A DNA stretch of 64,000 nt, taken from contig MU839106.1 of the NCBI GenBank assembly GCA_030685235.1, positions 399,864 to 463,863 of the forward strand, in the 5' to 3' direction. Shown piece after piece: positions 4,398-42,265 of this stretch. Under the pieces are notes generated by a model. It saw nothing but the letters and a program-made list of their open reading frames with translations. It ran no database searches and was not told the origin of the DNA. Source of the DNA: Copromyces sp. CBS 386.78 (lineage: Eukaryota > Ascomycota > Sordariomycetes > Sordariales > Sordariaceae). Numbering within the stretch: the stretch's first letter is position 1; the number at the start of each line of letters is the position of its first letter. A program made the position numbers and the translations under genes.

Positions 4398-4816
4398 GAT
4401 TGTGGAAAACAAAGTACGGTGAGAAAGATTGGGCAGGAGAAAACATTACCGAGGAGCGCGCAATGCCTCCATGTGAAAAGAGTATTGGCACTATAATATG
4501 GACGGCAAGGAACGACCAAGGGAGATGTGAAGGTGGGACCGGAAGCCCCGTGGCATGTCATGAACAACGTTCCAGTCATTAGGCGTAAACCGATCGGTAT
4601 GAGGAGAGTCCAATAACACAGGGAAGGGGAATTCAAGGATTTTAAGGTGACACAACCTTCCATCCACATCAACTTGTATGGGAGCAGGCAGGGTGTCGGG
4701 TGTTGGTGTGATAGAACTAGTACACGGGATGCAGTGTCATTTCATACCGCATACAGGGCGCGTTTGGTTCAACCAACAACTTTTCCATCTGTTTTCAACA
4801 GGGGTAGAGGAGGGTA
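4398..4816. other. upstream region with part of an older inverted repeat
   Basis: Presumed promoter and 5' UTR of the beta-lactamase-like gene. The last 35 bases, just outside the MITE, resemble the reverse complement of 5344-5370 (both arms contain CAGGGGTRGAGGA). The MITE therefore probably landed inside an older inverted-repeat sequence. Confidence 0.45.
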
Positions 4817-10815: not shown

Positions 10816-11979
10816 TTATAACCTGTCGACCTTCAACTGATATAACCTCCTCTTGCGTATCTCGCTTTCCGATCCCTTCTTTGCATCCTCCAACAGCGCC
10901 TCCACATCCCGTTCCGTGTCCACGTACCGCCCGCTCAAAATATCTGCGTCCTTACCCATGGCGGCCAGCCGTACACAGATATCCGCAAACTCTTCGGCCC
11001 TAGTTTCTGGATTATCCCCCTTCTTCCCTGCATCTTTCATCCGTTCAACCATATACCTCACCCGCTCACTTTCCTGGTAACTCTTCTTATCAACACTATC
11101 CTCCCTCTTCAAGATGGCCGTCTCAATGTTCCCAGGGACCACGAAAAAGTTCCTGACTCCTCTACCGCCAACCTCCTTTTCCAATGTCTCGTGAAACTTC
11201 AACAAGCCCGTTTTCGAAACATTATACGCCGCCATGAACGGCACCGGCACCACCGCGTTCCTGCTCCCCACGCTGATAATACACCCGTCCCCGGCAGCCA
11301 GCATCCCAGGTAGGAACTGATATGTCAAAGCCACTGGCCCTGTCAGGTTCGTGGCCATGACTTTTGTCCAACTTTGCATTCCATGTCCTTCTGGCTGTTT
11401 GAGTTTCCCACCAACTGGCACAGTAGAGGTACTTCCCTCCCACTCTTTGTCCACCTCCCCTTCTTCAAACGAGGAGGAAAACGTCCCATCAGACTCTGCA
11501 GGAGAACCTGAACTTAGTGAACCACATGGTCGCTGGAACTCCATCGCCTCCACCCTCGCCACCCCCGCATTATTCACCAGCACCGCAACCGGCTGATTGA
11601 CCCAATCCCTTATATCTTTTTCGAGCTGGGCGAAGGAGGACGGACAGGTGACGTCGCAGATGAAGTCTCGGGCGCGGTCGCTGTCGGTCGATGCATCATG
11701 GGCGGAGAAAAAAGAAGCAGCGTTTATCAGCTCGGCGACGGTTTTAGTTTGACTGTCACTGGGGGGATCGGAGCCGACGGGACCGAGAGGATAGGAACTT
11801 GAACGCGATACGCAGGCTACGAAGCACCCGGCGCGGGCGAAGGCGAAGGCGAGAGAGCGGCCGATGCCGGAGCCGGCGCCGGTTATGAGGGCTGTTTTGC
11901 CGGAGAGCGGGAGGGGGTGGTTGGTGGGGAAGGTCCGGGTGTCGGTCATTGTTCCGTCCGGTTTTTTCGTGGTTTCCAT
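10816..11979 (-). CDS. short-chain dehydrogenase/reductase (SDR)
   Basis: A single-exon ORF of 387 residues. It has the cofactor motif T33-G-A-G-S-G-I-G40, the NNAG motif at 136-139, the catalytic serine in IISVGS (S239), and the YxxxK pair Y252/K256: a complete classical SDR active site. The Rossmann core is interrupted by an acidic, Ser-rich insert at about 150-205 not usual for a 250-residue classical SDR. The C-terminus (after about 275) is an extra helical, basic tail. It likely acts as an NAD(P)(H)-dependent oxidoreductase in the cytosol; the substrate is unknown. The ATG at 11979 gives a sensible start, and a second Met at residue 11 is possible. Confidence 0.92.
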   Translation of the reverse strand: METTKKPDGTMTDTRTFPTNHPLPLSGKTALITGAGSGIGRSLAFAFARAGCFVACVSRSSSYPLGPVGSDPPSDSQTKTVAELINAASFFSAHDASTDSDRARDFICDVTCPSSFAQLEKDIRDWVNQPVAVLVNNAGVARVEAMEFQRPCGSLSSGSPAESDGTFSSSFEEGEVDKEWEGSTSTVPVGGKLKQPEGHGMQSWTKVMATNLTGPVALTYQFLPGMLAAGDGCIISVGSRNAVVPVPFMAAYNVSKTGLLKFHETLEKEVGGRGVRNFFVVPGNIETAILKREDSVDKKSYQESERVRYMVERMKDAGKKGDNPETRAEEFADICVRLAAMGKDADILSGRYVDTERDVEALLEDAKKGSESEIRKRRLYQLKVDRL

Positions 11980-13553
11980 TACATAGTGTGCGATGGCGGT
12001 GAGAAGAGTAAAGTGGAAGGAAGGGAGAGGGAGAAGTGGAAGGAAGGGATTGACGGTGGCTCTTGCTGAGGGAGGAATGCTTTGCTAGGCTGTAAGAGCC
12101 TGCGGGGTAAGATACAACCAAACAGTTGTGCGCATGTAGGGAAGGTACGGATGCAGCTCTTCCTGCAGCTACCCGCCGGTGCATCTATCTGGCTTCAGCA
12201 CTGACTGCTGCTGCGTTGGTTTCACATCCCACAAGAAGGCCCTGTGAGTATAGATTTTTTTTGCCATCTCTATGGGCATTTGCTCTTGAAGTTGGATTAA
12301 TATACAGCTGTCACCGGCGGACGTCGGAACTAAGACCGGATAAAGGTGGGTCAGGATGCCGAGGTGGGCCCCGGAGCCGGAGTGGAGACACGGCAGCCCA
12401 CTTCCCTGATCAGGAAGGCAAAGTCGGAGTCGTGGGACAGTCGTAACTCGCGCCTCGGCATGCATCGAAGCGCACACATTGATAACAATTTCCACTTGAC
12501 CTGGCAACTGGAACACGAACTTGCAACTTTCATCCTCCAAGTGGTGACAACCTCCGAAAACGAGTACGGAAGATCAACACCCACCAGCGTTATCGTCGAC
12601 GATGACTGCCGAGTCTAATGAGCTGGCTCGACTCATCACATCCAGGAAAATGCTAGCCAGTCCTTGCAATCACCAGCACCGCCGCACCAATGCGGTTCGA
12701 TCGGTCCAACAGCGCCATTCTTAGCGTTGAGCCGCCGGCTGGCTGAATCTGACAGGCGCCCGCCGGCGATGGGCAAAAAAGTCAACATCGATAAATCGTC
12801 ATTAATTCTAGTTGCCCTCCAGGCCTCCAGCTGGGTGGACAAGGCCCATCAACCCTACCACTCAGCGGCCGAGAAACAGTGGGAAGCCAACCGAGGCGCC
12901 GTCCATCGCTGTGCTGCCCCGCGAGAGTGCGAGCCAATCAGAGCGCCGGAGGCCGCTTTTACACGCTGAGTGGCTTCGCTGCTCTTTGCCGCTCCGCCAG
13001 TGACGGTGGTCCCTACTGGTCAACAAATCCAAAAACGCACGCCAAAATGGGCGAAATGGTCTGGCCCTTGTTCACTCCGGTTCTGTACCTGCCCTTGACT
13101 GGACATTGAAATTTTTGCGGTGCGGCGGAGTCAGTGATATCGGGAGACTTGTCAGATCATGATGTAAACAATGGGCGGGTCCGTCAAGGTCCAGTGTTGT
13201 CTCCCGAACCGGATCCCGGAGCTCTGGTCGCACCCAAACACTTGGGGTTCAACCGATCGTTTATCTTTCCTAGCTTACCAGTCTGTTGGAATCTCTGTCC
13301 CATTCTTCTCTCTTTTTGTTTCTCTTTGCTTTTTGCCGGGCTGCCGGGCAGACAACCTTCATTTTAACTTTCCTGTCCAGTCTACCCTCTGTCTTTTCCA
13401 TGTTGATGTGAGAACACATGGACCGTGAAGACCTCTAAACAAGTTCACTCCTTTCCAACAAGGCCATTATGTTTCGTTACTAAGGAGTCCACTTAACCTC
13501 CAACTTCCGGGTACACATTCCGTCCACCACAAAACTCCATCGCCACCGTAACC
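11980..13553. other. divergent promoter region, no gene recognised
   Basis: About 1.6 kb between the leftward SDR and the rightward rhodopsin-fold gene. Several 60-140 codon ORFs on both strands show no family motif or plausible splicing. TCTTTTTGTTTCTCTTTGC-type pyrimidine tracts at 13300-13400 look like a fungal core promoter for the gene at 13554. Confidence 0.5.
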
Positions 13554-24197: not shown

Positions 24198-25764
24198 ATG
24201 TTCGGTATGGCTAGGTCGAGGTATGCATCAGCAACCTACACCAATAACGGGGATGGAACGCAAATCATGCATGATGGTTATGGTTGTCAGAACATCACCG
24301 AATCTGGTATCATCAACAACTTCCAATACATCAACAACGGACCTATCTTCGGTAGGTCGCCTCCGCCTTTCCAACCTGTCTTTGGTGCGCTTCTCGACTA
24401 ATTTCCAACACTTCCGCTTGACAGTGAACCTGCCTCCGAACTTTCCTTTTGCCGACCAGGGCGTTGGTCCGAACTTCGACACGAGTCTGATTACCGAACC
24501 ACGCCAGCACCGCACTACGGGACAAATGAGAGGCGTAAGGCGGGCCAGTAGCATTAAAACGCCCCGATTACTTCGCCGCTTCCGACCTTACATCGATCGT
24601 TCTCCCACACGCCTCAGCCCCAATCATGCCGACGAGCACGCACACGCGACCTTGTCAGGCCCCCGATCACAGCCCCAACGACGCCCGTACTACGAGCCTC
24701 TCATACAAACCGCCGCCTTTCTGATATACTGGCTTCCCGGCCCCAGCTGGCAAGATCCACAAGGCCGAAACTCCGTCCATGATGCCGTCCAAAGGCAGTA
24801 CCACTTTGCCCTCCCGTTCTTGCTCGAGTTTCTCGAGGACCCGCTCCTTGCCCTGATCTTAGGCTCCATCGACTTACCCGCCCTGCTAAACACGCGCGAT
24901 TTGATCGAACAACGAACACCCGCTCACTACGCCGCCCTCCTAGGCGATCGGCACTCTCTTAAACTACTAGTGGACAAGGGGGCCGATGTGGAAGTGGCTG
25001 ACAAGCACGGGAACACGGTCCTGCACATTGCTGCGCAAAAGGGGTGGGCGGACGTGGTCAAGCTTCTGCTGGAGAACGGGGCAAAGCTCGATGAACGAGA
25101 CAGAGAGGGCTACACCCCCTTGCACCTCGCTGCCGCGCACGGGCGTCAGGAGGCCGTGGAGCTTCTGCTGGACGCAGGAGCGAAGAGGGACGTCAAGGAG
25201 GGCTTCCTCGAAAAGACGGCTCTGCATTCTGCTGTTGAGAAAAAGCACTTGAGCACCGTCAGGGCACTCGTACGCGGCTTGGGGTATGAGGCAGCTGCAT
25301 GGGATAGGGATAGGGATAGGGCTTTGGTGGACGATAAGGACTGTCAGAAACGTACGGCTCTCCATCTTGCTTGCCGGATTCAAGGCGGGCCGGCTGACCT
25401 CAGGATGGCGAGCGACATGGTGCACATCTTGATCGAAGCTGGTGCGAAGTTGGATGTCAAGGATGCGGAGGGTAGGACGGCTTTGATGTACGCTGCGCAG
25501 CGGGCAAATTTGGCGGCGGTGAAGTGCTTGGTGAGGAAGGGCGCTGATGTTGGCGTGAAAGATGGCCGTCATGAAGGGCCAGGGGGTAGAGACCGTACGG
25601 CAAGGGACTATGCGACAGATTTCGAACCGCGGGGCAGGGACTGGGAGGAGGTGGTAAGGTTTCTGTCCCGTGGTTCTGGTGGTTCCCATGGTCTTGGTGG
25701 CGGTTGGATGGATAGCGAAGGTCTCTTGGGTGGTCTTTGCACCGCTGCGCAAACGGATGGATGA
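24198..25764 (+). CDS. ankyrin-repeat protein with N-terminal amyloid-like signalling motif
   Basis: Exon 1 is 24198-24351 and exon 2 is 24425-25764; the 73-nt intron runs GTAGGT...GACAG. The protein has 497 residues. Residues 16-51 (NNGDGTQIMHDGYGCQN, then ITESGIINNFQYINNGPIF) are a Gly/Asn/Gln pseudo-repeat matching the C-terminal motifs of the two genes downstream. Residues 52-140 are basic and probably disordered. About 140-214 form a helical linker, and about 215-495 form six or so ankyrin repeats (TPAHYAALLG, TVLHIAAQKGWADVVKLLLE, TPLHLAAAHG, TALHLACRIQG, TALMYAAQRAN). There is no NB-ARC or NACHT domain. In known fungal pairs a receptor carries such a motif at its N-terminus and templates the same fold in a partner. 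I infer a receptor or sensor role. The frame from the ATG at 24064 would miss the motif, so a long-ORF annotation would get this gene wrong. Confidence 0.83.
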
Positions 25765-25876
25765 GATCATCATCATATCGTTGCAGGCTGGAGTGAGTTC
25801 TTTGGTTCCCTTTTCTTTTGTTTGTTGGTTTTTCCGCGCTGGTCTTTATGTCGTTCTTCACGTTTACATTTCCTTT

Positions 25877-26321
25877 GAGCTTAACTTCCCGCACCGTCCC
25901 TTTTGATTTGATGTACCCTTTTTAACTTAATATACCGCTATGACAGCTGATATAGTTTTCAATCGTCTTTATATAAAAATTTTGGTATTTTTAATATTTT
26001 AAGCATGGCGGTACGCCAAGTCAACCGCGACAGCAACCGCGACAGCAATCGACTTAGTATACCGCAGTCGCTATTACAGTCGCTATCGCAATCGCTATCG
26101 CGGTCGCTATCGCTAGCGATGGCAGTATAGGATGTTATGCTGAAATATAGCCTTGACTGTGTGAGAAAATATTACATGCGAAATTACGGATTGATTTTAT
26201 TATATAAAACGGGGTACTTTACATATTAGCTGTTATTCAGCTGTCGGGTGGAGTAAGTGCGGTATATCAAGTCAAAAAAAGGTACGCGAGGACATTAGGG
26301 ACGGTGCGGGAAGTTAAGCTC
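25877..26321. mobile_element. 445-bp MITE, 62-bp TIRs, 8-bp target duplication
   Basis: The terminal inverted repeats, 25877-25938 and 26258-26321, start GAGCTTAACTTCCCGCACCG and end in ATATACCGC. They differ only by a few substitutions and small indels. The flanks are an exact 8-bp direct repeat, TTTCCTTT (25869-25876 and 26322-26329). The AT-rich core contains a run of short GCGACAGC / GCTATCGC units (about 26025-26125) in inverted orientation that could fold into hairpins. It has no ORF. It begins 113 bp after the ankyrin stop codon, so it may lie in that gene's 3' UTR. Confidence 0.93.
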
Positions 26322-26329
26322 TTTCCTTT

Positions 26330-27170
26330 TACCCTTACCTCCCTCTGAATCACTCAAGAGAGATTTACGTTTACTGTCAGAAGGCTTCTTGCATTGCATT
26401 TACAGAAATCAACACACTCTATTAACCATGGCTCGGATTGAGCTCCCAAGTGACTTGCAGCCTCCCTCGTTCTGCGTTCTATCCACTCCATGTTTGACAC
26501 CTTTCTTGCGAAACTGCTTTAATCCCATGTTCATGATGCCAAGCTGATGAGTGATGCCCTGAGATGCCCAGCTGGATATCCCGTCCTCTCCGCGAGTAAA
26601 GGCCAGATCTCCCGCATTGTCATACGCTTAAAGTTTGCTCACGGGTTCCACGACTGTCGTCTTCACCTCCGTGGCCAGGATCGCCGCCGCACGCCTAGAT
26701 CCCACCCAACCGCAAGATCTCCGGCACGGGCGCCGTGTGTAAGCTTGGTTCTTCCCATGGTCCCACAAGCACTTAACCTCACATTTTATGCAAGGAATGT
26801 GTATATCCGATCCGGGGACTCTACCCATTTATCACTCCCCATTGGCCTACAAGCATCATCGGTTCATGCATGGGCGGCAGCGTCTCCGAAACACGTGGAT
26901 CCTACCCGCCCGGTGATCCCAGAAAATGTGATGGAGGCTGGAAAAGGCGACAACGAAAAAAAGGGTTGATTGGAGTTGTCTAACGGAAAGAGGAGAAACG
27001 GAAACCAGGGCGGCCTAAATACCCTGGAAGGGAGTGCCGGTGAATGGGCAAGGCCCAGTGAAGGGCAGCCAGCCCAGGGCACGGACTTCCAACAAAATGG
27101 GTAACCAATGGACTTAAACCGATGCCCCATCCTAGTCTGGGATGGTGGTCCAGTGGACAAAGGGCAGTTG
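26330..27170. other. intergenic, convergent 3' flanks
   Basis: Between the MITE and the stop of the leftward SesA gene. Several ORFs are shadows or chance. No repeat or RNA gene was seen. Confidence 0.45.
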
Positions 27171-27950
27171 TCATCGGGCGGTCGTAGTGACGTGAAAAGG
27201 ACCAGAAACTGGCCCGGAAAAGAAGACACCATGACCAGTGTAATTGTTCTGGACGCCGGTACCAGCATGTATACACTGCATTCCACTCCCACGGTTTTCC
27301 TGACTGTAATAATGCACCGAGCTCGGCGGGGGCGATGGAGTGGTCCATGTCGGGATCTCTGGTGATGATGATGTTGAGGACGACTCCCGAGAGGGAGGTC
27401 GATCATCCCAGCTGTACCAAGTGCTTTGCCTCCGAGACACGGGCCGTGAGAACAAGTCCATGGCCAGAGCGGCATGTGCTGCCGCTCTAATCTGCTTTTG
27501 AATATCCTGATCAAAGCTTTCTAACGTACGGCTGTCGGCCATGAGTTGGATATCTTCCAGTATTCCCTTCATGAGCGGTTCCACCTTTCGGCTTTTGCCC
27601 ATATGGAAAGTCATCATGGCAGCCGTGGTGAACCGCTTCCGCGCTGATGGCCTGGAGGCGTCTGACGGTATGAGTGTTCGGAATATCTTTTCCAATGCAG
27701 CGGCCCTCTGTTCACATGACATCAGAACTCCCGTCATTGCCGTGCAAGACCCCTTTACATCATCCTCGCTGAGCTTCAAGCCACTTCGAACCTGCTTGAG
27801 CGTCTTCGCTACTAGTGGCAGCCGAACACGGGCTTCCCTCATCGCTTCAGGCAGCCCGTAGACATCATTGCAGGCGTTGGCAATCTTTACGGCTGCGTCG
27901 ATAATGGATATGATGCTCGAGACGAGACTGATGATGTCCACGCCAGACAT
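27171..27950 (-). CDS. SesA-domain protein with C-terminal amyloid-like motif
   Basis: A single exon of 259 residues from the ATG at 27950. The frame is open up to 28265, but the conserved domain begins right at this Met. Residues 1-160 match the SesA domain (N-terminal domain of many fungal STAND proteins, also free-standing): GVDIISLVSSIISIIDAA, then YGLPEAMREARVRLPLV. A Ser/Pro-rich linker (170-212) follows. Residues 219-254 carry the pseudo-repeat NRGSGMQCIHAGTGVQN, YTGHGVFFSG, very like those in the ankyrin protein and in the gene at 30847. In known fungal systems such a protein is the cell-death or regulatory effector, driven into an amyloid state by its receptor. Here this is inferred from architecture and neighbourhood. 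Confidence 0.86.
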   Translation of the reverse strand: MSGVDIISLVSSIISIIDAAVKIANACNDVYGLPEAMREARVRLPLVAKTLKQVRSGLKLSEDDVKGSCTAMTGVLMSCEQRAAALEKIFRTLIPSDASRPSARKRFTTAAMMTFHMGKSRKVEPLMKGILEDIQLMADSRTLESFDQDIQKQIRAAAHAALAMDLFSRPVSRRQSTWYSWDDRPPSRESSSTSSSPEIPTWTTPSPPPSSVHYYSQENRGSGMQCIHAGTGVQNNYTGHGVFFSGPVSGPFHVTTTAR

Positions 27951-30846
27951 TTTCGTACAGGTGTCGTTAAGAAATTCGAGAGCGTTGAGCAGATAAGGAG
28001 TGTTGATGAGTGGCGTTGACAGGGGCAGTTGGCAGATAACAGTACCAAACTGCTGCCTAGAGTGATTCCGGTTATGGTTGGAAATTGGAGATATGAAGCT
28101 GAAGTTGAGGAAGGGTGGCGGTCGGCAATGAAAACGTGTCGTTGGGAGAAGGTTTCGGGCGGGAGGAAGAAGAAAGAACAGGTGTGGGTGAGTGGTGAGG
28201 TGGCAGTCTTTCCTAGGCTGTGTGTCCTGAAGTGGTACAAAAGCAGTTGCATTCAAATTGAGCACGCTAGCCGAATGTAGATCTCCCGCACTTCCACCTT
28301 ACTTGAGCTAGCCGGGGTGCGCAGCGGCCCAGAGGTCTACGTGTCAGATGTGACCGTGCAGAATTGATTGATTGAAGAGTATATGTAACTAACTCGCCCC
28401 TCGCCTTTTCGTTGGCTCTCCGGAGAAAGGATGCAGTGGTTACAGGCCGTAAGGCCTTCTCACTGCCGTCTTTTAACATGACTGTCTCGATGAGCCTCCA
28501 TCCCAGGGCTGTGACGAGTCGAAGCTCTCCAATTGTTCGTCTTTAAAAGGCATCCTTGCCTGCTGGGGAAGCAACTTGTATCGTCGTGAGTTATCGTGAG
28601 AGAAAATGCAGCAGCCCATCACCTGTAGCAGCCCGATCCCCCCTCAAAAATGAACGAGACAAGACATCGGAACCATGCAAAACGCTTGAAAGCTCACTCG
28701 TCAGGACTAGAAACAATTTTTTTGGACCCGACGGCTTGTTCCACGGTGTTATGAGTGCCCAAATTAATGTCGCACGAAGCAAGCAAGCCCGAAAGGGCAT
28801 GACGTGAGGAAATCTCGAGCACAGCCCCATCCAATTCCAATCAACACCCGCCAGAGCCTGCAACGACGGGCTGTAGAGGCAAGATTTCTGCTTGGGTAAG
28901 GTAGGGATGCTTGTAGTTTCTGCATGTCATGACAGCATGCATGGGTGGTTGTACTTCGCCGGTCGAAATTTACATGAACTTGTCCAATTATGGGCTTCAT
29001 GTAATATGCAGACATTAGAAAGACCACTGTCTCGTGGGGAGCCGTGATAGGCCTATCTGTGACCCCTTTAGAACATCAAGTGAGCTTGAAAATTTGCTGA
29101 AGATGTTTTGGCCGCTGTGCATACCTCACTAAGCCGGATTTTCTGTGGGACTAGCATTATGGACAAAACTGGCATATATTGCGCGGTGATATCTGCTCGA
29201 AAAGCGCGAGTTTTTGCTGTGCGCCGTGATTCAGTCCTCCATGCTAATCACAGCCTGTTTGGACGGCTTATAGAGCTACCTTACCTAGACCATTCCGCTG
29301 TCTGGGCTAAGCCAGTCTACCCAATTGAACTGAAACCATAGTATTCTATTCACATTGAGGGTTGCCAATGGCAGTGAGTGGATGATGCGTTCCCAAAGAG
29401 GAAACGCGGCCTTGCTCTATAAGTAGATTATTTCGACGTGGCAGTCGCTCGGCATGTCAGGTTTATCAGATGTCCGGACAGCAGCACTAACAATATACCC
29501 CGCTCTATTAGTAGGCCAGTTGTTAGTGGTAACCAGGGCACTTCTCACCTCGAGCGCAATAACTGGTTGGAGACTGGATAGACTGGGATGTCGTCATAAC
29601 CCCTCTAATTGCAACTGCCTGCCGTGAACAACTCCGCAATGAACCAATCAAAGCATCGGTTGATATCCTCACAGCAGTTTTAACCCTAAACACTTCCTTT
29701 CTTGGGTAGCTGATCCCGAGCCCTTCTGTACTTCTTTACTTCGCAAGCCAAATTCAACACCAGTTTTCCGCCCAGTTCGGTTTTCCTCTGTGTCACCGGG
29801 ATTTTGGATATGCGACACGCAACCTCAACTGGTGGTCGGAGAGAGAGAGGTTGTGGACTGCGCGCAGTCTAGCAACTTGGATGTATAGCCGGATTGATTA
29901 TACCGGAAATCGATTTCTAGGTATGGATTGGACCAGAGAAGAGGGGATGCGGATACTTGGTGAGCGAGATACAGACCCTCATCTCCACGAGTAGTGTTGG
30001 CTAGCGCCTGCCACCTACATTTTCGACTTCCGACATGGAGCAGCCAGGTCCAGCCACATCAGAACTGACAACCAGTCGCAACCGGTATAATGTTCCTTCC
30101 CACTGCAAGTCAACCCCCATTTCTTTCCATGTGTGTCACCCAGTTTCAATGGCCATGATGCCCAACTAACAATCCGAGCAATGATGTTGTAGCCTCCTCA
30201 GCTCGAACCAGTGAGGGAAGTGCACATATTTGACCTTGGTGTCTGCCCTGCCTATGAAGACGAGGCTTTGACGCACCCCGCCACCCGGCGTTGCATTATG
30301 TGTTTCCTGCCCTCCGTGATTTCTTGCTTCACGGCTTCAACCGTCAACTTGGGATGAAACAATGCTGACTTGCATCTATAGACAATGAATGGAGGCTCTA
30401 CAGCCGTCCGTTTTGCGAATGGCTTCCAACGACTGGAGCCCAACCACGGAAGACCGGATCCGACCTACTAGTGCATGTGAGTTATTGGCCAGTAGGTCTG
30501 GGACAAGTGAAGTTCATCGCTGTGTTCAAGATGGTGTTGAGAGCCTGTGCTTCATTCCATAAATAGTTATTTTATAGGTCAGCCCACGTATCGTATCTGG
30601 GCTCGGGCAACATCAACATCTTGACTTATTACTACCTCTACACTTCTGGCCACCTCACTGCAGCCACAGGACGCTTTTATCGCCTTTTATCATCCTTCTC
30701 CAGTCGACTATCAGCAATCTCACATTTGCCAGGCTTTTCTTCTCATTCGAACCACTCCCGCTTGGATGCTTACGAGCTTTCGACTTGGCTAGGTCTCTAT
30801 CAGGAGGGCTGGCTATCCCAAGCATCAAGCAACATAGGTTCAGAAC
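27951..30846. other. long intergenic stretch, no gene recognised
   Basis: About 2.9 kb between the divergent SesA gene and the 30847 gene. It should hold both promoters. ORFs are short and without motifs, and no inverted repeats or RNA genes were found. The first 300 bp (to 28265) stay open on the minus strand but read as a CT/CA-rich leader, not protein. Confidence 0.45.
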
Positions 30847-31743
30847 ATGCCCAAGGGCAAAATCCGAAAGTTGATCAAGGATCGACTCCGTCACAAATCA
30901 CCAGACAACAGAGGCCTGGAAGTTCCGGTCGAGCGATCATCACAACACAGTTCATTGGACATAACCGGAACTCGTCCTTCAGCCGATCGATCCCGTCAAC
31001 ATTCAACAGAGATGAGTAGATCCACTGCTACAGCCACAGTCACAGCCACGGACAGAGACTGCCTTCAAGCTCTGAATGGTTGGACCTCAAGGTTCAATGA
31101 ACTTAGCCGGCATGTTGAGCAGGGTTCCCCTACAGCCATGGCCCTCGATTCCGCCCGAGCAGTCGTCCGAGAGTTGAGCTACTCGGACCTTCTCGATGAG
31201 GGCAATAATGAGGTCTTTGAGGCGGTCGTGAACACCAGGCGGGACTTCGACGAGAAGTATGAAGAGACAATTGAAAACATCGGGCGTGGAAACTCCAGAG
31301 AAGAAAGGCCAGAGGCAGCAAACAAGGTCATCATCAACACGCAGGACATTGTGAACATGGTTTTGGGACTTGTACGGCAATTGCCGCCCCGCCTTCAACC
31401 GGAGCAGAACAAGGTCAAAGATCTCAAGGAGAAGGCAAAGAAACTCGACAAAGCGGTCAGCGATTCCTACGCAGCGGGACATCTCTACAACATGAGAAAC
31501 AGCGGGTCGGGACAGCAAAATTTCCTCTCGGGTTCTGGGACGCAGAATAACAGTACTGGCCATGGCTCGATCTTCAGTGGTCAACAGTCCAGAGGAACCT
31601 ACAACATTGGACCTTCGGGACTCCCATCACCACCAGCGGCGTCACCTGAAGAGTCGAGGGAGTCGAGGGAGTCGAGGGAGTCGAGGGAGTCGAGGGAGTC
31701 GAGGGAGTCGAGGAAGTCGAGGAAGTCAAGCAACTCAGGTTGA
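30847..31743 (+). CDS. helical protein with C-terminal amyloid-like motif and Ser-Arg-Glu tail
   Basis: A single exon of 298 residues. A very basic start (MPKGKIRKLIKDRLRHK) precedes a disordered Ser/Thr stretch to about 68. Residues about 70-210 are a charged, mainly helical domain (LQALNGWTSRFNELSRHV, VFEAVVNTRRDFDEKYEETI) that I do not recognise. Residues 218-256 hold the shared pseudo-repeat (NSGSGQQNFLSGSGTQN, STGHGSIFSG), nearly the same as in the SesA gene. The protein ends in a tail of Ser-Arg-Glu triplets encoded by 9-bp tandem repeats. A domain of unknown fold with the motif at its C-terminus fits a second effector, the helical part acting as the executor domain. This is inference; the motif match is direct. 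Confidence 0.77.
   Translation: MPKGKIRKLIKDRLRHKSPDNRGLEVPVERSSQHSSLDITGTRPSADRSRQHSTEMSRSTATATVTATDRDCLQALNGWTSRFNELSRHVEQGSPTAMALDSARAVVRELSYSDLLDEGNNEVFEAVVNTRRDFDEKYEETIENIGRGNSREERPEAANKVIINTQDIVNMVLGLVRQLPPRLQPEQNKVKDLKEKAKKLDKAVSDSYAAGHLYNMRNSGSGQQNFLSGSGTQNNSTGHGSIFSGQQSRGTYNIGPSGLPSPPAASPEESRESRESRESRESRESRESRKSRKSSNSG
31653..31730 (+). repeat. 9-bp tandem repeat (GAGTCGAGG)n inside a coding region
   Basis: Seven near-perfect copies of GAGTCGAGG followed by two variant GAAGTCGAG-type units. They encode Glu-Ser-Arg triplets at residues 269-292 of the protein starting at 30847. In-frame 9-bp units like this expand and contract easily, so copy number probably varies between strains. 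Confidence 0.9.
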
Positions 31744-32949: not shown

Positions 32950-33030
32950 TCTAGGCTAGATGACCCTATTCTAGGCTAGAGTCTCAGTCAGTTGGGATTA
33001 GGTGTTTAGCCTAGACTCAAAATCTAGCCT
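32950..33030. repeat. cluster of TCTAGCCTAGA-like palindromes, left arm
   Basis: Four copies of a near-palindrome (TCTAGGCTAGA / TCTAGCCTAGA) in about 80 bp. A matching cluster of at least five lies at 41130-41235 in the opposite arm. Such repeated sub-terminal motifs often serve as transposase binding sites, but that is a guess here. Confidence 0.65.
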
Positions 33031-33177
33031 AGACGCCCAATGGAGGCTTGTGATTGGTTAGATCTATTTTGGTGATGAGATGATGGTTCCTTCTTTCCCA
33101 AAGTTCATAGTTCCTTCTTTTTATCTCCTCCCACCCTATATTAAAGGAAAGAACGAAGCCCGCTTTCAATTAATTGG

Positions 33178-33256
33178 GCTAGTGGCTCAATGGTTCTTGT
33201 CGTCGTTGTCTTCCTTGTGATCGCCAGTTCGATTCTAACTGGTGATAGCTTTTTTT
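33178..33256 (+). other. tRNA-like, pol III-type sequence (tRNA pseudogene or SINE head)
   Basis: An intact A box (TGGCTCAATGG, 33183-33193) and B box (AGTTCGATTCT, 33226-33236) have normal spacing. A 7-T pol III terminator follows at 33250-33256. The 5' and 3' ends (GCTAGTG / TGATAGC) pair mostly, and the T-arm region folds as CCAGTT/AACTGG. The anticodon stem does not pair, so this is not a working tRNA. It lies between the left TIR and the gypsy LTR and may be a SINE head. Confidence 0.5.
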
Positions 33257-33277
33257 CCGTTGCGCGAAAAGTTTCGC

Positions 33278-33334
33278 GCGCGGAAGTGTAAATGCCCTCA
33301 TCCGGGCGCGGAAGTGCAAATGCCCTCATCCGGA
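33278..33334. repeat. two tandem 28-bp units
   Basis: Two copies of GCGCGGAAGTGYAAATGCCC followed by TCATCCGG sit just before the LTR element. They differ at one or two positions. Origin unknown. Confidence 0.75.
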
Positions 33335-33384
33335 TTTTGAAGTCAAAATCCTAAACGGCTAGAGGTACCAAAAGGACTACTAAG

Positions 33385-33604
33385 TGTTATGGTTCTTGCA
33401 CGGTTGGCACAGGTGCAAGGCAAAATGTGTATTGAAAAGGTTCGATAAGGAGAAGAAGAATCTAGATATATAGAAGGAGCGGTGGATAGCGCTCTTATAC
33501 CCAAGGGGTCTATGTTGGGAGATAGGGTATACGTTGTATACGTTTGGAAGGTATACGTTTGGAAGGCTTCTAGACTAGGACTTTTAGGCGGCAGCCCTAT
33601 AATA
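33385..33604 (-). repeat. 3' LTR of the gypsy element
   Basis: A 220-bp direct repeat of 40807-41026. Differences between the two copies are largely C-to-T and G-to-A (for example TTGCACGG versus TTGTACGG), in line with RIP acting on each copy separately. It is 3' with respect to the minus-strand pol frame. Confidence 0.93.
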
Positions 33605-36600
33605 TTACCCCCTACTAGACTATAGCCCTACCTCTTGCCCCACCTACTACCTTACTTTAATATTGTAAACGTAATAATTACGTCTCCCTCGATCTTTCCT
33701 TCTTTTTTTCTCCTTTAATAATAATAATAATATTAGTAATTAATTCGCTATCGCCGTTCTTATTCGCTCGTTATTCGTTATTATCGTTGCGCTCCCGTAT
33801 TTTATAAATCGTCCTTCCTTTACTTATTTTTCGTAATTATAAAATTACGAAGTATATTTTGTTTTAATTTAAATTAGTATTAACCTTTCCCTTACGATTA
33901 AAAATTATTATAATATTTTCACCCTTGCGCCCGCCCCCGACTTTTATTAGTTATAATTATAGTTACCCGCCCGGCTTAAAAAATATTATTTTGTCTACCG
34001 TCTGTATCCGCGCTTTAGAAAATAAGGCGCGCGAGAGTTATATTATTATTAACGTTATTTAAGCTTCGATTAGCGCTGTTTACGTTATATTAGCTACTAT
34101 TTAGGCCCGTTGCGAAAAGGAGGCCGCTAAGTACAATATTTATAATATTACCTTCGTTACTAAAGCTTCGGAAATTATTTATTCCTTTAATATAGTACGT
34201 TTATTAATTATTATTATTCTACCCTTAATCCTTTTAATTAACCCGTTTTTAAGGTCTTACTACCGTTTTTTTTATAGAGGAGGAGCCTTTCTACTATCGT
34301 TATACTTTATAGGACTTAATTTATATACGCCTTAAGCCCGGCGTTATATATATTTATTATTCGAAAGTACGCTATATTTGTACTTCTACGCCTAAATATT
34401 TTATTAGGGCTATTAATATTTAAGGAATATTACCCGCTTATAAAAAGGAAGGTACCGACGCTATTTCTAATATAGGTATTAAATATTATAAATTTTCTTT
34501 TCGGGCTTATTAAGTTTAGAAGGTTAGAATGGCTATTTATTAATTATTAGAAAATATTATAGTATTTCGCGCCGCTAACCTTATTAACGTTTTTTAATAA
34601 GTATAGTCTTCTTTTTAGTATATGGTATTATTAACTTAACGATATTTAAGGAAATTATTAATACCTTCGTCGATAGTAAGGTTATAAGTACTATTATTAT
34701 TTCTTTCGAAGTATTAGAAAATCGTTTAAATATTTTCGAATCCTATTTTTACTATTTAACTAGTTTTCTATTTTCGTTAGGAAGTATAGAAATTATAGAG
34801 GAGGCTAAGGAGGAAGATAGAAGAAGAGGGGAAGAAGAGGATAAGGAAATAGGAGAGGGGGATATTGAAGAGAGTAGGAAAGAAGGTAATATTATTATTA
34901 GCGTTTAAATAATTTATATTCGTATTATTTTAATTTATATTTATATTTTTAGGCCTAAAACTATTGGTTAGGAGGGAGTAGGGGTTTTTTTAGTAATTTC
35001 GGCCGTAATTTCTTTTTATAAATAAAAATCCCGCCTTCGGACGTATATTTCTTTCTATTTAGCCGTTTCTTATATATAATATTATTTTCGGGGTTTATTA
35101 TTAAATTTAATAGGTTTATATTTAATTTTAAATAAGTTTAGTACTTGGGTTTCTTAGAATTCTTTTAAGGGCTCTTAAATAAATTTCGTATAATTAATTT
35201 ACTTTATTAAAATTTATTTAACGAATCCCCTTCCTATAGCGGCGTTCTTTGTATATAAGATTTTATTAACTTCGTATTCCTTTTCGCTATTTATTATTAT
35301 AGTAGGGGGTTAGGGGTCGGTTTTTTTTTAAGTAAAGGAGGGGGATTCTTCGATTTTTTTTACTTAATTTACGTAGAAGTTAATTAGCCCTTTTTTAAGT
35401 ACGTCCAAAGTTATAATGTATAGGAAGGGAATAGTAGTAATTGTATATTTAGTGTATAATTAATTTAATTTCTTCTTCAATTTAATAATAGGAAAATTCT
35501 TTAAATTTAATTAAACTTTATCTTTTAATTAGAATTTATTAATTAAACGTCTTTTCTTATTCGTTTACTACTTTATTTCTTACGCTACTACTTTTATAGA
35601 AGTTTAATATAAATTTATAATTTATTAAAGCTTTTAAACGAATTCGGCCGTCCGTTATTTAGGTAAATTTAATTTTACCGGGGTTATTAAACGAATTATT
35701 AGGACGACGGAATCCGGGTAATAGTTATAGATAACGAAGAAAAGGGATACCTTTATAAAGGAATTAATATAGTTATTAATAGCTATTTATATTATAAGAA
35801 GCTAGTAATCCTAATCGTTTTATTATTAATTAATATAAGCCTTTAAAAAGGCTAAAATTTCTTAGTTTATTTATTCGGGGCGTCTATTTATTTATAAGTA
35901 GTAAATAATATTTAATTTACGATTAATATTTAGTAAGAAATATAGATAAGTTTAGAATTCGTTAATCCAATTAGTACTTCGGTCGTTAATAATTAATTTT
36001 AATTATTAATAATATTATACGAAATATTAAAGGAAACGCTCCGTATATTATTTAGCGGTTATATTTTCTATAGGTTCGAGGATAACCTCTTTATTTAATT
36101 TATTTTTAATAATTTAGAGGTTGCAGAAGCTATAAATTAGAGGTAAATCGGTAATAAAGTTTATTTATAAATATTTATAGTAGTGGTTGGGGACGTTGAG
36201 GGGTTTAAGAAGGCTATACTTATATATTCTCTATTATTTAGTATAATTATATACATTGTAATTCTTAAAGAAACGTTGAATTTAGGTTTAGAATAGTAGT
36301 TAATAGAAGTTTTAGGCAATAGCGGCTATAGTGCTTTCTTTCTTAGGGTAGTTAACGATTTTAGAGTCGTAAACGCGCTAGATTAATTATATATATAATT
36401 CGTTTCGAGGGTTGAGGGGCTGGGCGTTTATTTCCTTTATTATTAATTATTTTAGGATTTAGAGTCGGTTTCTATAGGTAAGCCTACTTTAAGGGTCGAT
36501 CTTATATTTAGATATTTATAATTGGAGGCTAATACCGATAGGGAAGGTATAATTACTATGTTAAATTATTTAATATACTTCCTAATAAATAGAATCGGTT

Positions 36601-37379
36601 TAGATCGTTTAGTCCTAGAGTTTTTATAAATCCGGATTATTAAAAGTTTTAATATTAGGTAAATTTATATTTTCCTTTACAGAAATAGCGGAAATGCGTA
36701 TATATTTACATAAAACTTTATTAAAAATGAGTTATAAATCCTTTGCCTCTAAATTAATACTGTTAAGGAAATTTTATTCTTTCTTCGAAAGGGTATTTAG
36801 AATTATAATTTTAATTTTAGGGCGGTAAATTAAATTAAAATTAAATTAAGATAATTTTTTAGCCTAGTAGGCTTATTATTTTAAAAAGCGTTACCGTTTT
36901 ATAAAGTATTTTAAATTCTAATAATTAGTCTAAATTATAAATTTAGGGTATGAATATAATTCGGCGGACTATTAATTTAAATAGCGGATTATTATTAGTA
37001 TTTCCTTATTGTAGATAGGGTAATTCTATTCTATAGAGGAAAATTTTTGTAAGTAGAATACGACGGCGTACTTACGGCTATTTATTTCCTATATAAATAT
37101 TCTTCTTAATACGAAATTACTATAGTCCGTCTTTAGGAATGTAGGGCGGTTAGGGTTAAATTTTACGAGGATAGGAATTTTAGTAAATAAATCCTTTATT
37201 ATATTAAAGGCCTACTATTGTTCTTCCCCTTATAAAAATTCAATTCCCTTATTAGTAAATACTATTAGGAGATTAGCGATCTTGGAAAAATTCTTAATAA
37301 AAATACGGTAGTAATTTATAAAATTTAAAAAGCTTTTAATACCCTTCTATAACTTTAGAACTTTTTATTCTTTAATTAT

Positions 37380-38110
37380 TTATATTTTTTCGGAGTCCGT
37401 TTTAATTTTTATGTTTACGTATATGATGAAATTTAAATATTTCACTTTTTTAACGGCGAATTCGTATTTATTTAAGTCGAAGTATAGGTTAACTTTATTT
37501 AATTTATTGAAGACTAAGCGGATTTTATATATATAGTTAGCGTAGGAGCCGTTAGAGTAGATAAGGATATTATTTATATAGGCGGAGGCGAAATTATTAA
37601 GGTATTCCTTTAAAATAGAATTAATATATTTCTAAAACGTATTTAGTACGCTATAAAAATTAAAAGGGGTAATTATCTATTTAAATAAGCCGAATTGCGT
37701 AATAAAAACTGTTTTCTACTCTTTACCTATTATTATCCGGATTTTATGGAACGTTTGTATAACGTCGATTTTCGTTAATTATTTAGCCCTTTTTAAATTG
37801 TGAAGAGTTTTTTTAATAAGGGGAAGGGGATAATAATTTAGTTTAATAATAGTATTAAATATATAGTAATTGTAGTAGAAGCGGAGTTTATTTCTTGGCT
37901 TCCGTATAAATAGTATTGGAGTTATGGCTTCGGAATGGTTAAGGCGAATAAACCCTTTATTAAATAATTTTCGTAAGGTTTTTTTTAAAATTAGTAATTC
38001 TTTTTGAAATATATTATATAGCGAGTTTATTAGTATTGGAAGGTCGTTTCCGTTAATATCCTTCTTAATTTCGATATAGTAATCGATGCCCGGCTTATAT
38101 GGGTTTAGTT
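37380..38110 (-). pseudogene. RIP-mutated gypsy reverse transcriptase
   Basis: The region of the element where a gypsy RT is recognisable on the minus strand. It has the PGIDYYIE block before the polymerase palm, KIDVIQTFHKIRI, an FGLFK block, the mutated active site YINN, and VKYLNFII of the thumb-proximal part. Tryptophan codons have become TAG and Asp codons AAT, all G-to-A on this strand, as RIP predicts. Confidence 0.85.
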
Positions 38111-38792
38111 TATTGGCCTCTTACTTTATAAATAGGGGAATTAAGTTATAGAATTCGGTAAATATTATTTTTTTAAGTTCGGCTTTAGTCTTTAGCTTTT
38201 TTGGCGTAAAGGCCCTCTTTATATTATATATTAAGATTATTATAATTAGGATTATGTAGTTTCTTTTAGGATTGTAGACGTAGTTAAAAAAGCGTAAAGC
38301 CTTTATTATTACGGCTATTTTTATTTCCGCTTCCTAAGTATATAGGGTATATTAATTAGTATAAGGGAGCTATTTATTAGTATTCCCGTATTAAAATCTT
38401 CTTTAATATAGTATAGAAAATAATTTGTTTTAGGAAAGTTAAGGTTTTCTAAAGATAATTGGGTATTTTAATTAGGGTATTATATAAGTATTAACTTATT
38501 AACGGTATCCGCTAATTTCTATTGTGAATATAGTTATTTTACTAATTTCGGCCCCCTCTATAGTTCCCAAAGCGCTTTTAATTTAGCGGGTGCTAATAGA
38601 GATTTAGGGGAGGCGTAAGTCGTTTATAAGATTTTTATTTATTACGGCGTAATATTAGTATTTTTTATCTATTAATATATATAGGAAATTTCGGTTTTGA
38701 ATAATAATTAATATTTCTATTACTTTTACCTCTAGTACTAATACGCTAATCGTTATTCGAAATTTAGTTATTTTAAGGGGTGGTATAAATAA

Positions 38793-39205
38793 GAGAAAGT
38801 CTTTTCGCACCGCCGCAAATGTCTTTTCGCACCGCTATCAAAAAAGGCTTTTGGAGGTAATTCAGCCAAACTAAGGCCGTAGTATATAAAAAGTACATCG
38901 GAATTTTTATTCATTTTCCTTCTACAATATGATGTGTCCGGCGTACCTAGGCGCCCTTTATAGCCCTCAGTATACAATAAAAGAAGAAAAAACTATTTAT
39001 TTACTTTAAATTTGGAATATTTGCATTGAGTCTTTCCTTCAAGCAGATACGTCTACGGCAACTAGACTATAAAATAGAGTAGAAAATTACAAAAATTCTA
39101 ATACCATTTTTATACTGACAACTTCTTTTTTAACAAAGTTATACTTAGTGGTATTTTGGACGGCAGTGTATAAAGACATTTGCGGCGGTGCGAAAAGACT
39201 TTCTC
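38793..39205. mobile_element. 413-bp MITE nested in the dead gypsy element, not RIPped
   Basis: Perfect 34-bp terminal inverted repeats begin GAGAAAGTCTTTTCGCACCG and end GCAAATGTCTTT. An exact 8-bp duplication, ATAAATAA, flanks them (38785-38792 and 39206-39213). The TIR keeps CpA sites while all surrounding gypsy sequence has lost them, so it arrived after RIP had finished. The core has no ORF. GAG termini and 8-bp target duplications are shared with the MITEs at 22505 and 25877, though the rest of the TIR differs. Confidence 0.93.
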
Positions 39206-40606
39206 ATAAATAAAGGAATATAAGTGGCTATTATAATATTGGACTCCGGGTCCCGACGATAAACTGGAATTAGGTTTTTCCTTATTTAATAGGCGTAGAG
39301 GTTAGGGAGTCGGATTTATTATTTTTAAGTAGGGGGGCGTAAGTATTAATATTAGCGATTATTAGGGTAATAGAAATAGTTTAGATACGTATTTAATTTA
39401 AGTTAATAGTTGGGGTATATAAATATTAAGCCTATAAATAGTTATTCCCTCCGTACTTTATATAGCGGTTTTATTCCCTCCTTTTGTAGTAGTTTTCGTC
39501 GGAGACTTATTTAGCGTATTATTTTCCGGAATTATTAGTTAGGCGGTGTAGAGTTTAAATTATTTTAATAGTAGTTATTACTATATTGCTATTGGTATTT
39601 TTAAACGTTGTATTAAATTTTAAAGATTTGGTAATAGCCGAATAGGCGGCGGCTATATAGGAGGAGGGGGTAGACGTTTGGCCGTATATGTAACGACCTT
39701 TACTTTGTTTTTAGGCTTATTAGAGGGTTTGGCCGGGTTTAGTTTATTCGAAGTTTTATGTAATAATATAAAAGCGTTATATATATTCGTTATAATCCGT
39801 TAGTATAATTACGGGTATTAATTACTATTTTAATTCTTTAAAGAGCGAGCTAGTTAGTTAAGCGAAGTAAGAGTCGTTAGTTTAAGTATTACTGCTAGCC
39901 GTAGTAAATATTTATTCGAATTTAGGTAAGAATTTGCCTAAGGGTTCTCCGGATATTTAGACTATTTTCTATAGTTTAGTTTACGCTTTCTATATTTTTT
40001 GTTCGCTATTAAAAATTTGAGTAAAGTGTTCGAAGAAGTGCCGGGGGTTAAAAGATTTATTAGGGCTTCCTACGGTTTAGAATGCTTAGATATACGGTTT
40101 TAGTTTAGCGGGGAGCGTATATAAGATTTAATATTACGCGACTTTATTATTATTAATAAAATTATCCGGGCTATTTAAATTATATTTAAAGATTAATTAA
40201 TTTATAAAAAAATAGAACGAATTAGATTCTTTATTTTAGGTAGATTAGTTGAGAGCTTTCTACTTCGATTTTTCAACGGAGGTCGCCGCTGCTAGTACAA
40301 TAGTAGGCGCTATAATCTAATTGTTAAATTAAATGTAATAAATTCGGCTAGAATTGTATTCGGCGAGTTTAGTACGGAAAACTACGATTTAATTAGCGTT
40401 TTAAAATAGTTTAATTATAAGGTTGGGCGAAGGGTTTAAAAAGGGGGGAGCGGATATATTAACGTATTTAGGGAGGATAGTAGGAAGATAGGTATTGAAC
40501 GTATTAAATAGAGAATTAAAAGGGGGGAGTCCGCTATTCTACTAAGGGTTCTACTAGGGGTTCTACGGGTATTATTAGTTCTATTAGGGATTTTATTGGG
40601 GGATTT

Positions 40607-40722
40607 ACTAGTTTTACTAATTCTACTAAGGGATTTATTAGTTCTATTAGTTTTGTTGGTTCTATTAGTTCTGTTAGTTCTACTAGTTCTATTAGTTCTA
40701 CTAGTTCTATTAGTTCGGATTA
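40607..40722. repeat. 9-bp tandem repeat near the gypsy 5' LTR
   Basis: About a dozen AGTTCTATT / AGTTCTACT units. Read on the minus (sense) strand they encode Glu-Leu-Ile/Val triplets, perhaps part of a gag-like N-terminus or leader. The plus-strand Leu/Val-rich ORF across it is only a shadow of this repeat. Confidence 0.8.
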
Positions 40723-40806
40723 TTAAGATTTATTTGCTAGTAGTTTCCGTTTATTATAGTAAGGACCGCGTGCGTATAGAAGGACGACGTGTGAGGTCGA
40801 ACCTAA

Positions 40807-41026
40807 TATTATGGTTTTTGTACGGTTGGTATAGGTGTAAGGTAAAATGTGTATTGAAAAGGTTCGATAAGGAGAAGAAGAATCTAGATATATAGAAGGA
40901 GTGGTAAACAGCGCTCTTATACCCAAGGGGTCTGTATTGGGAGATAGGGTGCACGTTGTATACGTCTGGAAGGTGTACGTCTGGAAGGCTTCCAGACTAG
41001 GACCTCTGGGCAGCAGCCCTATAATA
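40807..41026 (-). repeat. 5' LTR of the gypsy element
   Basis: A 220-bp copy of the LTR adjoining the duplicated CTAAG at 41027-41031. It is 5' with respect to the minus-strand pol frame. Confidence 0.93.
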
Positions 41027-41625
41027 CTAAGAAGACCCCAATTAAAGACCTTTAGAAGGCCTTATAGGGGTCTTTGGCTTTTATTATTTTGCACCAAAAT
41101 CCGACCAATCAGAGGCCTTCATTTTTCGTCTAGCCTAGATTTGAAGTCTAGCCTAGATTTGAAGTCTAGCCTAGATAGCCAGACTGTGCTAGAATCACAG
41201 TCTGGGCTAGACACCCCCTATCTAGCCTAGACACCCTCCTTATAATCCCGCTGCGGTATATAATTGGAAAGCTAAGAAAACTATTAAAAAAAAAGCTATT
41301 ATATATAATAAATTAGGAAAATTAAAAGTCTATAGTCTAAGAAAGTAGGATTTAGATAACGTTTAGGGTTATAAGGATAGTACCTACTATGAAAAATCTG
41401 TTAAAAATCAGCGAGTAATTTGGTACTACTTTTATTTTTATATACTAATGTTTGACCGAGTTATAGTTAGAAAGAAAAAGTGGATCCACGTACAAGTAGA
41501 GTTTTATCAACGTGCGAGTAGAGTTTCTCTACTTATAAGGGGTTAAGAACAATTTACAAGAGATCTCGTCCAGTAGACTAGGCGTACCGAGCTAACAAAC
41601 AAACCAGTATTAGATTGTATTTTAC

Positions 41626-42265
41626 CCCAGGGGCACGGTACGGGGTTCGGCCAGGTGCACCGGCGTAAGACCGGGATGCGGGTCCACTCTTCCCGGACAG
41701 GTCCACTTTTCCCAGAAGACTTCCGTGACACTGTGCGGGCGGTTTTGCCGGCCTGAGGTAATTCGCATTCCGTTGAACGATTAACGATATAATACCCACT
41801 CAAGTTGACTATATTGACCAGCCCATCCTGGGACGTTGACTTCAGTTCTGCCAGCGTGCACGGTCCAGACAGACGCTCGCACAGTGATTGGCCGATTCAG
41901 GCCCGGCCGAGATGCTCTTCAGGATGTTAAGCAATGGCCTAAAATTGTCGTGATTGTGTACTTCTGCCACTATGCACTAACACTTTCACCATCGTTGCAC
42001 GCAGGCAAGTCCTGACCAAAACTTGCAGCATTCCACACATTCCACGGCTGTTTTTCCGTTCGCATATAGAGATGCACCTGTGACTTCTTGAGCCAGGTCA
42101 GCAGCTATTATGTCGGTCCCTTTGAGTGGGCGCAGCTGGGATAAAAGAAGGGATTTGAGGTTAATTGGGGGTTAATCGCCAAGTGGAAGCCCAAGCCTCT
42201 GGGGGGGGGGGGGGCGCCCCCCGCCCCCCCCCCCCCCCCCGCCCCCCCGACCACCCCACCAAGCC
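41626..42265. other. right flank of the nested repeats, no gene
   Basis: Ordinary base composition resumes after the long-TIR element. No gene was recognised. From 42201 it runs into G and C homopolymers ending at the assembly gap. Confidence 0.5.

What the first reader, a model, noticed from the sequence alone, without database searches (positions are those of the whole stretch)
24198..31743. Three-gene cluster sharing an amyloid-like signalling motif
An ankyrin protein carries N-NGDGTQ-x4-GYGCQN at its N-terminus. A SesA-domain protein and a helical protein carry R-GSGMQ-x4-GTGVQN and S-GSGQQ-x4-GSGTQN at their C-termini. The common pattern is N-x-G-[DS]-G-x-Q-x(4)-G-x-G-x-Q-N-x(3)-x-G. Known fungal amyloid pairs (HET-s/NWD2 and sigma-type Ses systems) place the motif N-terminally on the receptor and C-terminally on the effector, encoded by neighbours; this locus has that geometry with two effectors. 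The motif match and order are seen; amyloid templating and cell death are inferred.
Basis: partly seen in the sequence, partly recalled or inferred. Interest (0 to 1): 0.88.

Follow-up and report, generated by a model that had tools for sequence, protein, structure and literature searches.

The report
Fungal amyloid-signal cluster with NOD-less ankyrin
Three neighbouring fungal genes share a short amyloid-type tag of the known sigma kind, linking two likely cell-death proteins to an ankyrin protein that lacks the ATPase switch of the receptors described for such systems.

Summary
GxGxQ-x4-GxGxQN occurs in 3 of 1332 window ORFs, all in these genes, and in none of 200 shuffled sets. The two effector tags match Pfam NACHT_sigma and fit the published sigma repeat definition. 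The ankyrin tag is weaker: no Pfam hit, profile E 5.3e-4 for the exon-1 ORF, 0.0085 for the spliced protein. One receptor with two effectors is already described for PP and sigma clusters.

The genome is almost certainly Copromyces sp. CBS 386.78. Pseudoneurospora amorphoporcata encodes all three proteins. Amyloid formation, templating and cell death are inferred. Verdict: new variant of a known kind.

The parts
24198..24351 (+). Ankyrin gene exon 1, encoding the N-terminal sigma-like tag
   Evidence: Splice model matches annotated P. amorphoporcata protein P0003, which starts at the window's Met4
24249..24293 (+). Core of the ANK sigma-like motif, GDGTQIMHDGYGCQN
   Evidence: Pattern and profile tests; no Pfam match
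24352..24424 (+). Intron of the ankyrin gene (GT...AG)
   Evidence: same junction in P0003
24425..25764 (+). Ankyrin gene exon 2: linker and ankyrin repeats; no NACHT, NB-ARC or Walker A motif
   Evidence: Pfam Ank_2 E 1.5e-63 and other ankyrin models, no NOD family at E<=10; no GxxxxGK[ST]
27171..27950 (-). SesA-domain effector gene, 259 aa
   Evidence: PF17107 SesA residues 10-137, E 3.4e-28; 18 database homologues
27192..27302 (-). C-terminal sigma motif of the SesA effector: three GxG nonamers
   Evidence: PF17106 NACHT_sigma, E 2.5e-5, 24.7 bits against a cut-off of 27.6; 28.1 bits, over the cut-off, in the genome scan
30847..31743 (+). Second effector gene (gene 3), 298 aa: helical bundle, sigma motif, serine-rich tail
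   Evidence: homologues P0001 and P0002
31051..31500 (+). Helical bundle of gene 3, residues 69-218
   Evidence: AlphaFold2 best model: pLDDT 75-92 per block of ten over residues 71-210; the other four models score lower overall; no PDB match by sequence
31492..31611 (+). C-terminal sigma motif of gene 3: three GxG nonamers
   Evidence: PF17106 E 2e-4, 21.9 bits, under the cut-off; 25.5 bits, under the cut-off, in the genome scan

Best explanation
The locus holds two effectors with true sigma motifs and works like a ses-type amyloid-signalling cluster, but it is not one by definition, because an ankyrin-repeat protein without a nucleotide-binding domain stands where the NLR would be. Proposed mechanism: the ankyrin repeats bind a ligand or partner that clusters the protein; the clustered N-terminal sigma-like segments adopt the cross-beta fold and template the C-terminal sigma segments of two soluble effectors; conversion triggers their N-terminal helical bundles, SesA and a second bundle of probably similar type, to act on membranes and kill or arrest the cell. 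Shown here: the shared motif, sigma identity for the two effectors, the three genes within 7.5 kb, absence of a NOD in the gene model, motif conservation, and helical-bundle models for both effectors. Inferred: amyloid formation, cross-seeding, direction of signalling, ligand sensing and cell death.
For: Motif sharing far above chance. NACHT_sigma matches in both effectors and nowhere else in 49.8 Mb at E<=0.001, in a search whose first look proposed only these 2 candidates. Three-fold 9-residue periodicity in the effectors, equal to the published AAA organisation GxGxQFNxx (passage, PMC3321046). Gene-3 and SesA motif profiles match each other at E 1e-8. Motif kept while linker and tail drift: mean pairwise identity 0.62 against 0.29 (linker) in 8 SesA rows, and 0.89 against 0.42 (tail) in 3 gene-3 rows. 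All three proteins occur in P. amorphoporcata at 96-97% identity; the ankyrin and SesA clusters list the same longest contig length, 29616 bp. No sigma tag at 36 NACHT/NB-ARC loci (33 distinct places), best E 0.65; with the ANK exon-1 ORF added as control it scored 0.0015. SesA is described as remotely homologous to the HeLo domain, the execution domain of HET-S (passages, PMC5485727 and PMC4518210).
Against: The ANK motif has no Pfam match, its third repeat is degenerate, the spliced protein scores only E 0.0085, and its profile-profile matches are modest (E 5.4e-4 to SesA, 0.0062 to gene 3, at hhalign probabilities of 30 and 6). The described receptors have a NOD, the oligomerisation module; this protein lacks one. 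In P. amorphoporcata gene 3 is listed on a contig of another length (36081 bp), so three-gene linkage there is not shown. Motifs are not more alike within the cluster than between orthologues, unlike published sigma clusters. No amyloid test was possible.
Confidence: 0.57

Rival explanations
1. The ankyrin protein is not the input but a regulator: its tag, with a degenerate third repeat, co-assembles with the effectors and caps or sequesters them (decoy or antidote). The trigger is something else, such as spontaneous prion-like switching as proposed for sigma in Nectria.
For: No NOD. Only two of three repeats are intact. Sigma in Nectria arises spontaneously at low frequency (passage, PMC3321046), and only sesA and sesB were found to be part of the locus (passage, PMC516043).
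Against: The N-terminal position copies that of the receptors. A receptor with fewer repeats than its effector is also usual in HET-s-type pairs: 95 pairs gave 285 motifs (passage, PMC4518210).
Confidence: 0.2
2. The ankyrin gene is a remnant of a NACHT-ankyrin NLR that lost its NOD and is drifting; the effectors respond to another receptor or to none.
For: NACHT-ankyrin with a sigma tag is the published Nectria arrangement (het-eN, passage). The degenerate third repeat would fit decay. A sigma-tailed Nectria protein not adjacent to a STAND gene has been reported (passage), so effectors without a neighbouring receptor exist.
Against: The ORF and splice are intact here and in P. amorphoporcata at 97% identity. 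A third source, P0004 (366 aa, 79%), keeps an open ankyrin frame with 46 fewer residues in the repeat region, though its exon 1 was not seen. No NACHT match lies on the window's contig at E<=0.01.
Confidence: 0.12
3. The ANK match is coincidental; only SesA and gene 3 form a real sigma pair.
For: No NACHT_sigma match for ANK; E only 0.0085 for the spliced protein; some shuffles of its G/N/Q-rich N-terminus score close, the best one above it.
Against: The exact pattern lies in a neighbouring gene and in no other window ORF outside the effectors; 1 of 100000 shuffles of the N-terminus reaches its score.
Confidence: 0.11

Closest known systems
Nectria haematococca ses/sigma locus (sesA, sesB, het-eN)
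   Same: Three neighbouring genes; a SesA effector; the same motif class at effector C-termini and at the N-terminus of an ankyrin-bearing protein (PMC3321046, passages)
   Different: het-eN has a NACHT domain, this ankyrin protein has none; sesB is an alpha/beta hydrolase, gene 3 is a helical bundle
HELLP/SBP/PNT1 (PP motif, Chaetomium globosum)
   Same: One tagged input and two tagged effectors in one cluster (PMC5485727, passages)
   Different: Different motif family; PNT1 is an NLR
HET-S/NWD2 (Podospora anserina)
   Same: Receptor N-terminus and effector C-terminus share an amyloid motif; neighbouring genes (passages)
   Different: HET-s motif, not sigma; NWD2 is a NACHT-WD NLR; a single effector
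HeLo / SesA / MLKL four-helix-bundle execution domains
   Same: The SesA gene carries PF17107; the gene-3 model shares PDB neighbours with the SesA model (14 entries common to the two lists of 50)
   Different: Gene 3 has no significant sequence similarity to SesA outside the motif (hhalign probability 2.7)

Membership tests
Sigma amyloid-signalling motif | Three-fold repetition of submotif A (GxGxQFNxx) and/or B, effectors | tested here: met
   Both effectors read GxGxQ-x4, GxGxQ-x4, GxG-x6
Sigma amyloid-signalling motif | Three-fold repetition, ankyrin protein | tested here: inconclusive
   Two intact A repeats and a degenerate third
Sigma amyloid-signalling motif | Pfam NACHT_sigma (PF17106) match, effectors | tested here: met
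   E 2.5e-5 and 2e-4, both below the curated cut-off in the protein scan; in the genome scan SesA is over and gene 3 under it
Sigma amyloid-signalling motif | Pfam NACHT_sigma match, ankyrin protein | tested here: not met
   0 families at E<=10 for exon 1; only ankyrin families for the whole protein
Sigma cluster (ses-type) | Adjacent NLR/STAND gene (NACHT or NB-ARC) with an N-terminal sigma motif | tested here: not met
   The ankyrin protein lacks a NOD; 36 NACHT/NB-ARC loci of the genome show no motif
Sigma cluster (ses-type) | SesA and/or SesB effector with a C-terminal motif | tested here: met
   SesA PF17107 E 3.4e-28
Sigma cluster (ses-type) | Motifs more alike within the cluster than between orthologues | tested here: not met
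   Window SesA 16-residue core: 8 identical to ANK, 8 to gene 3, 12 to the N. crassa SesA P0006
Sigma cluster (ses-type) | Motif forms amyloid or prion and cross-seeds | not testable with these tools
   Needs fibril and foci assays
NLR (STAND receptor) | NACHT or NB-ARC domain | tested here: not met
   Ankyrin protein: no NOD family at E<=10, no Walker A
HeLo/SesA/4HB execution domain (gene 3) | Sequence profile match | tested here: not met
   No Pfam match of that kind; domain-only hhalign to SesA, probability 2.7
HeLo/SesA/4HB execution domain (gene 3) | Same fold | tested here: inconclusive

The most novel reading that the evidence does not exclude
Fungal amyloid signalling does not need an NLR: an ankyrin-only sensor without any ATPase switch nucleates sigma amyloid and fires two different helical-bundle executioners, one of them from an undescribed domain family. 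Receptor surveys built on NACHT or NB-ARC domains would largely miss such systems.
Probability: 0.4. Interest if true: 0.78.

Novelty: new variant of a known kind. Interest (0 to 1): 0.6.

Why it matters
In the passages of reviews and surveys that I saw, the fungal partner of an amyloid-tagged effector is an NLR, and catalogues are built mainly on the nucleotide-binding domain. If an ankyrin-only protein can seed sigma amyloid, the NOD is one of several ways to start the fold, as RHIM adaptors suggest in animals (recalled). The class of fungal cell-death inputs would then be larger than NLR counts show. The cluster also offers a small three-protein system in which nucleation by clustering alone can be tested, and a candidate new executioner family.

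Tried and rejected
Hidden NOD in the ankyrin protein or left beside it: no Pfam NOD, no Walker A, and no NACHT match on contig C28 at E<=0.01. The one NB-ARC row on C28 (E 0.0097, under the cut-off) is the TPR-linked gene about 16 kb upstream; the loose sigma pattern has no hit in it.

A partner NLR elsewhere: motif peptides from ANK, SesA, the C116 SesA and P0013 and regex/profile scans of 36 NLR loci found none. Limits: the search tool's first look is narrow (the ANK peptide finds only itself, P0013's motif misses gene 3), and each NLR locus was held only to about 1.5 kb either side of the match.

SesB in this genome: Pfam PF17046 gives 0 matches. PMC12261475 (passage) says that model is a misnamed PP motif, so this does not test for SesB lipases.

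Gene 3 as a diverged SesA by sequence: domain-only hhalign is not significant; the whole-protein match is carried mainly by the sigma motif. No PDB sequence matches gene 3.

Structure of the motif: low pLDDT in both models, so nothing was learnt about its fold.

Literature on a NOD-less receptor: searches listed none that I recognised from titles and abstracts. Nine papers were opened for passages only; none was read in full, and the library is open-access PMC. One survey (PMC12258605, passage) brought in 60 NLR members with no predicted NB domain through orthogroups; I did not see whether any resembles this protein.

Full report
SOURCE. The window is the right end of contig C28 (399864-463863) of a 49.8-Mb, 273-contig genome. 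Another SesA protein of that genome (C196) is identical over 214 of 214 residues to P0014, named Copromyces sp. CBS 386.78, and both lie on 56750-bp contigs. The genome is therefore almost certainly that strain. Copromyces and Pseudoneurospora are both in Sordariaceae.

GENES. Three genes lie within 7.5 kb. The ankyrin gene (+) has a short exon 1 holding the tag and a second exon with the ankyrin repeats; the same splice is in the annotated P. amorphoporcata protein P0003, which starts at the window's fourth codon. The SesA gene (-) and gene 3 (+) are uninterrupted ORFs. Pfam finds only ankyrin families in the first (Ank_2 E 1.5e-63), SesA (E 3.4e-28) plus NACHT_sigma (E 2.5e-5) in the second, and NACHT_sigma (E 2e-4) and otherwise only weak matches, the best at E 0.022, in the third. 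In that scan both NACHT_sigma scores, 24.7 and 21.9 bits, are under the curated cut-off of 27.6. In the genome scan SesA scores 28.1, over it, and gene 3 scores 25.5, under it.

IS THE SHARED MOTIF REAL? GxGxQ-x4-GxGxQN hits exactly 3 of 1332 ORFs of at least 30 codons (83,419 residues) and none in 200 shuffled sets. A profile from ten effector motifs (SesA-type and gene-3-type; two intended members, P0007 and P0017, were lost because my segment finder missed them) ranks the ANK exon-1 ORF third, E 5.3e-4; the next ORF has E 0.018. The spliced full-length ankyrin protein scores less, 12.5 bits, E 0.0085 at the same database size. One of 100000 shuffles of the first 55 ANK residues scores as high as the real order. 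Profile-profile comparison gives E 1e-8 for gene 3 against SesA, 5.4e-4 for ANK against SesA and 0.0062 for ANK against gene 3, the last two at low hhalign probabilities (30 and 6). The effectors' relation is firm; that of ANK is likely but weaker.

IS IT SIGMA? Daskalov et al. 2012 (PMC3321046, passages) define sigma as three repeats of motif A, GxGxQFNxx, and/or motif B. SesA reads GSGMQCIHA/GTGVQNNYT/GHGVFFSGP, gene 3 reads GSGQQNFLS/GSGTQNNST/GHGSIFSGQ, and ANK reads GDGTQIMHD/GYGCQNITE followed by a degenerate third unit. The effectors are AAA-type sigma. A second SesA gene of this genome, on C116, carries a variant (GTGTQYIHVHGGGILNIN); no NACHT or NB-ARC row lies on C116 and no NLR was recognised among ORFs of at least 170 codons within 10 kb either side.

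CONSERVATION. The SesA search gave 18 hits, several with the motif, from Neurospora, Sordaria and others. I aligned the window protein with 14 of the 18 and used the first 8 of those 15 rows for identities: motif 0.62, domain 0.61, linker 0.29. For gene 3 (3 rows) the motif scores 0.89, the bundle 0.80 and the tail 0.42. Gene 3 and the ankyrin protein have two hits each at E<=0.001: P. amorphoporcata and one unnamed source. For gene 3 only the 7995 candidates sharing most words were scored. The ankyrin search used residues 1-220 and could only return proteins of 0.55-1.75 times its length, so a full-length NLR carrying the same tag would not have been seen. In P. amorphoporcata the ankyrin and SesA clusters both list a longest contig of 29616 bp, which suggests linkage; gene 3 lists 36081 bp, so its position there is unknown.

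THE INPUT PROTEIN IS NOT AN NLR. There is no NACHT, NB-ARC or Walker A motif. The genome scan gave 25 NACHT rows (18 over the cut-off) and 11 NB-ARC rows (6 over), 33 distinct places in all. None of the 36 loci has a convincing motif hit: best E 0.65, against 0.0015 for the ANK exon-1 ORF when it was added to the same set as a control. Published sigma receptors are STAND proteins (passages). The Sordariales survey finds NLRs mainly through NB domain plus repeats (PMC12258605, passages), though 60 members without a predicted NB domain came in through orthogroups; a protein like this would probably fall outside it. The third source, P0004, lacks 46 residues of the repeat region; variable repeat number would fit a sensor but proves nothing.

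MECHANISM. The likeliest reading is ligand- or partner-driven clustering of the ankyrin protein, nucleation of the sigma fold at its N-terminus, templating of both effector tails, and activation of two membrane-acting bundles. One receptor for two effectors is described for PP and proposed for sigma (passages). What differs here is the missing NOD and the second effector domain. Because the NLR criterion is not met, I do not file the locus as a ses-type cluster; I say that it probably works like one. The regulator and remnant rivals cannot be excluded from sequence.

VERDICT. The unremarked parts, a NOD-less input and an undescribed effector domain, make it a new variant worth testing.

Noticed in passing
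window 6689-10078: NB-ARC/AAA_16 plus TPR gene in several frames (Pfam: AAA_16 E 2.3e-6, TPR_12 E 2.5e-8), about 14 kb left of the cluster; no loose sigma pattern. Whether it is multi-exon or decayed was not worked out.
   Followed up: partly
window 33001-42000: AT-rich block (GC 0.24-0.43 per kb) just right of the cluster; looks like a RIP-mutated repeat island (inference).
   Followed up: no
window 63001-64000: GC drops to 0.31 at the contig end; no tandem TTAGGG repeats in the window.
   Followed up: partly
L007 / L040 (G000:C116:83424-83801): Second SesA gene with a variant sigma-like tail and no NACHT/NB-ARC row on its contig: an apparent orphan effector.
   Followed up: partly
L008 (G000:C196:11509-11907): Third SesA gene that stops before the motif; its N. 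tetraspora relative P0013 keeps a full sigma tail. L009 (C63) is a SesA match with five stops inside.
   Followed up: partly
L043 163-4177 (G000:C196): NACHT reading frame with an upstream frame that looks like an alpha/beta hydrolase (by eye, no Pfam run): a possible all-in-one SesB-type NLR.
   Followed up: no
window 31650-31740: Repeated SRE-type tripeptides at the end of gene 3, fewer in P0001 and P0002: a repeat-length difference between relatives.
   Followed up: partly
window 2568-4445, 10816-12084, 51680-52315, 55377-56429, 60841-61323: Ordinary neighbours: beta-lactamase-family protein, short-chain dehydrogenase, thymidylate kinase, GTP cyclohydrolase I, CFEM protein.
   Followed up: yes
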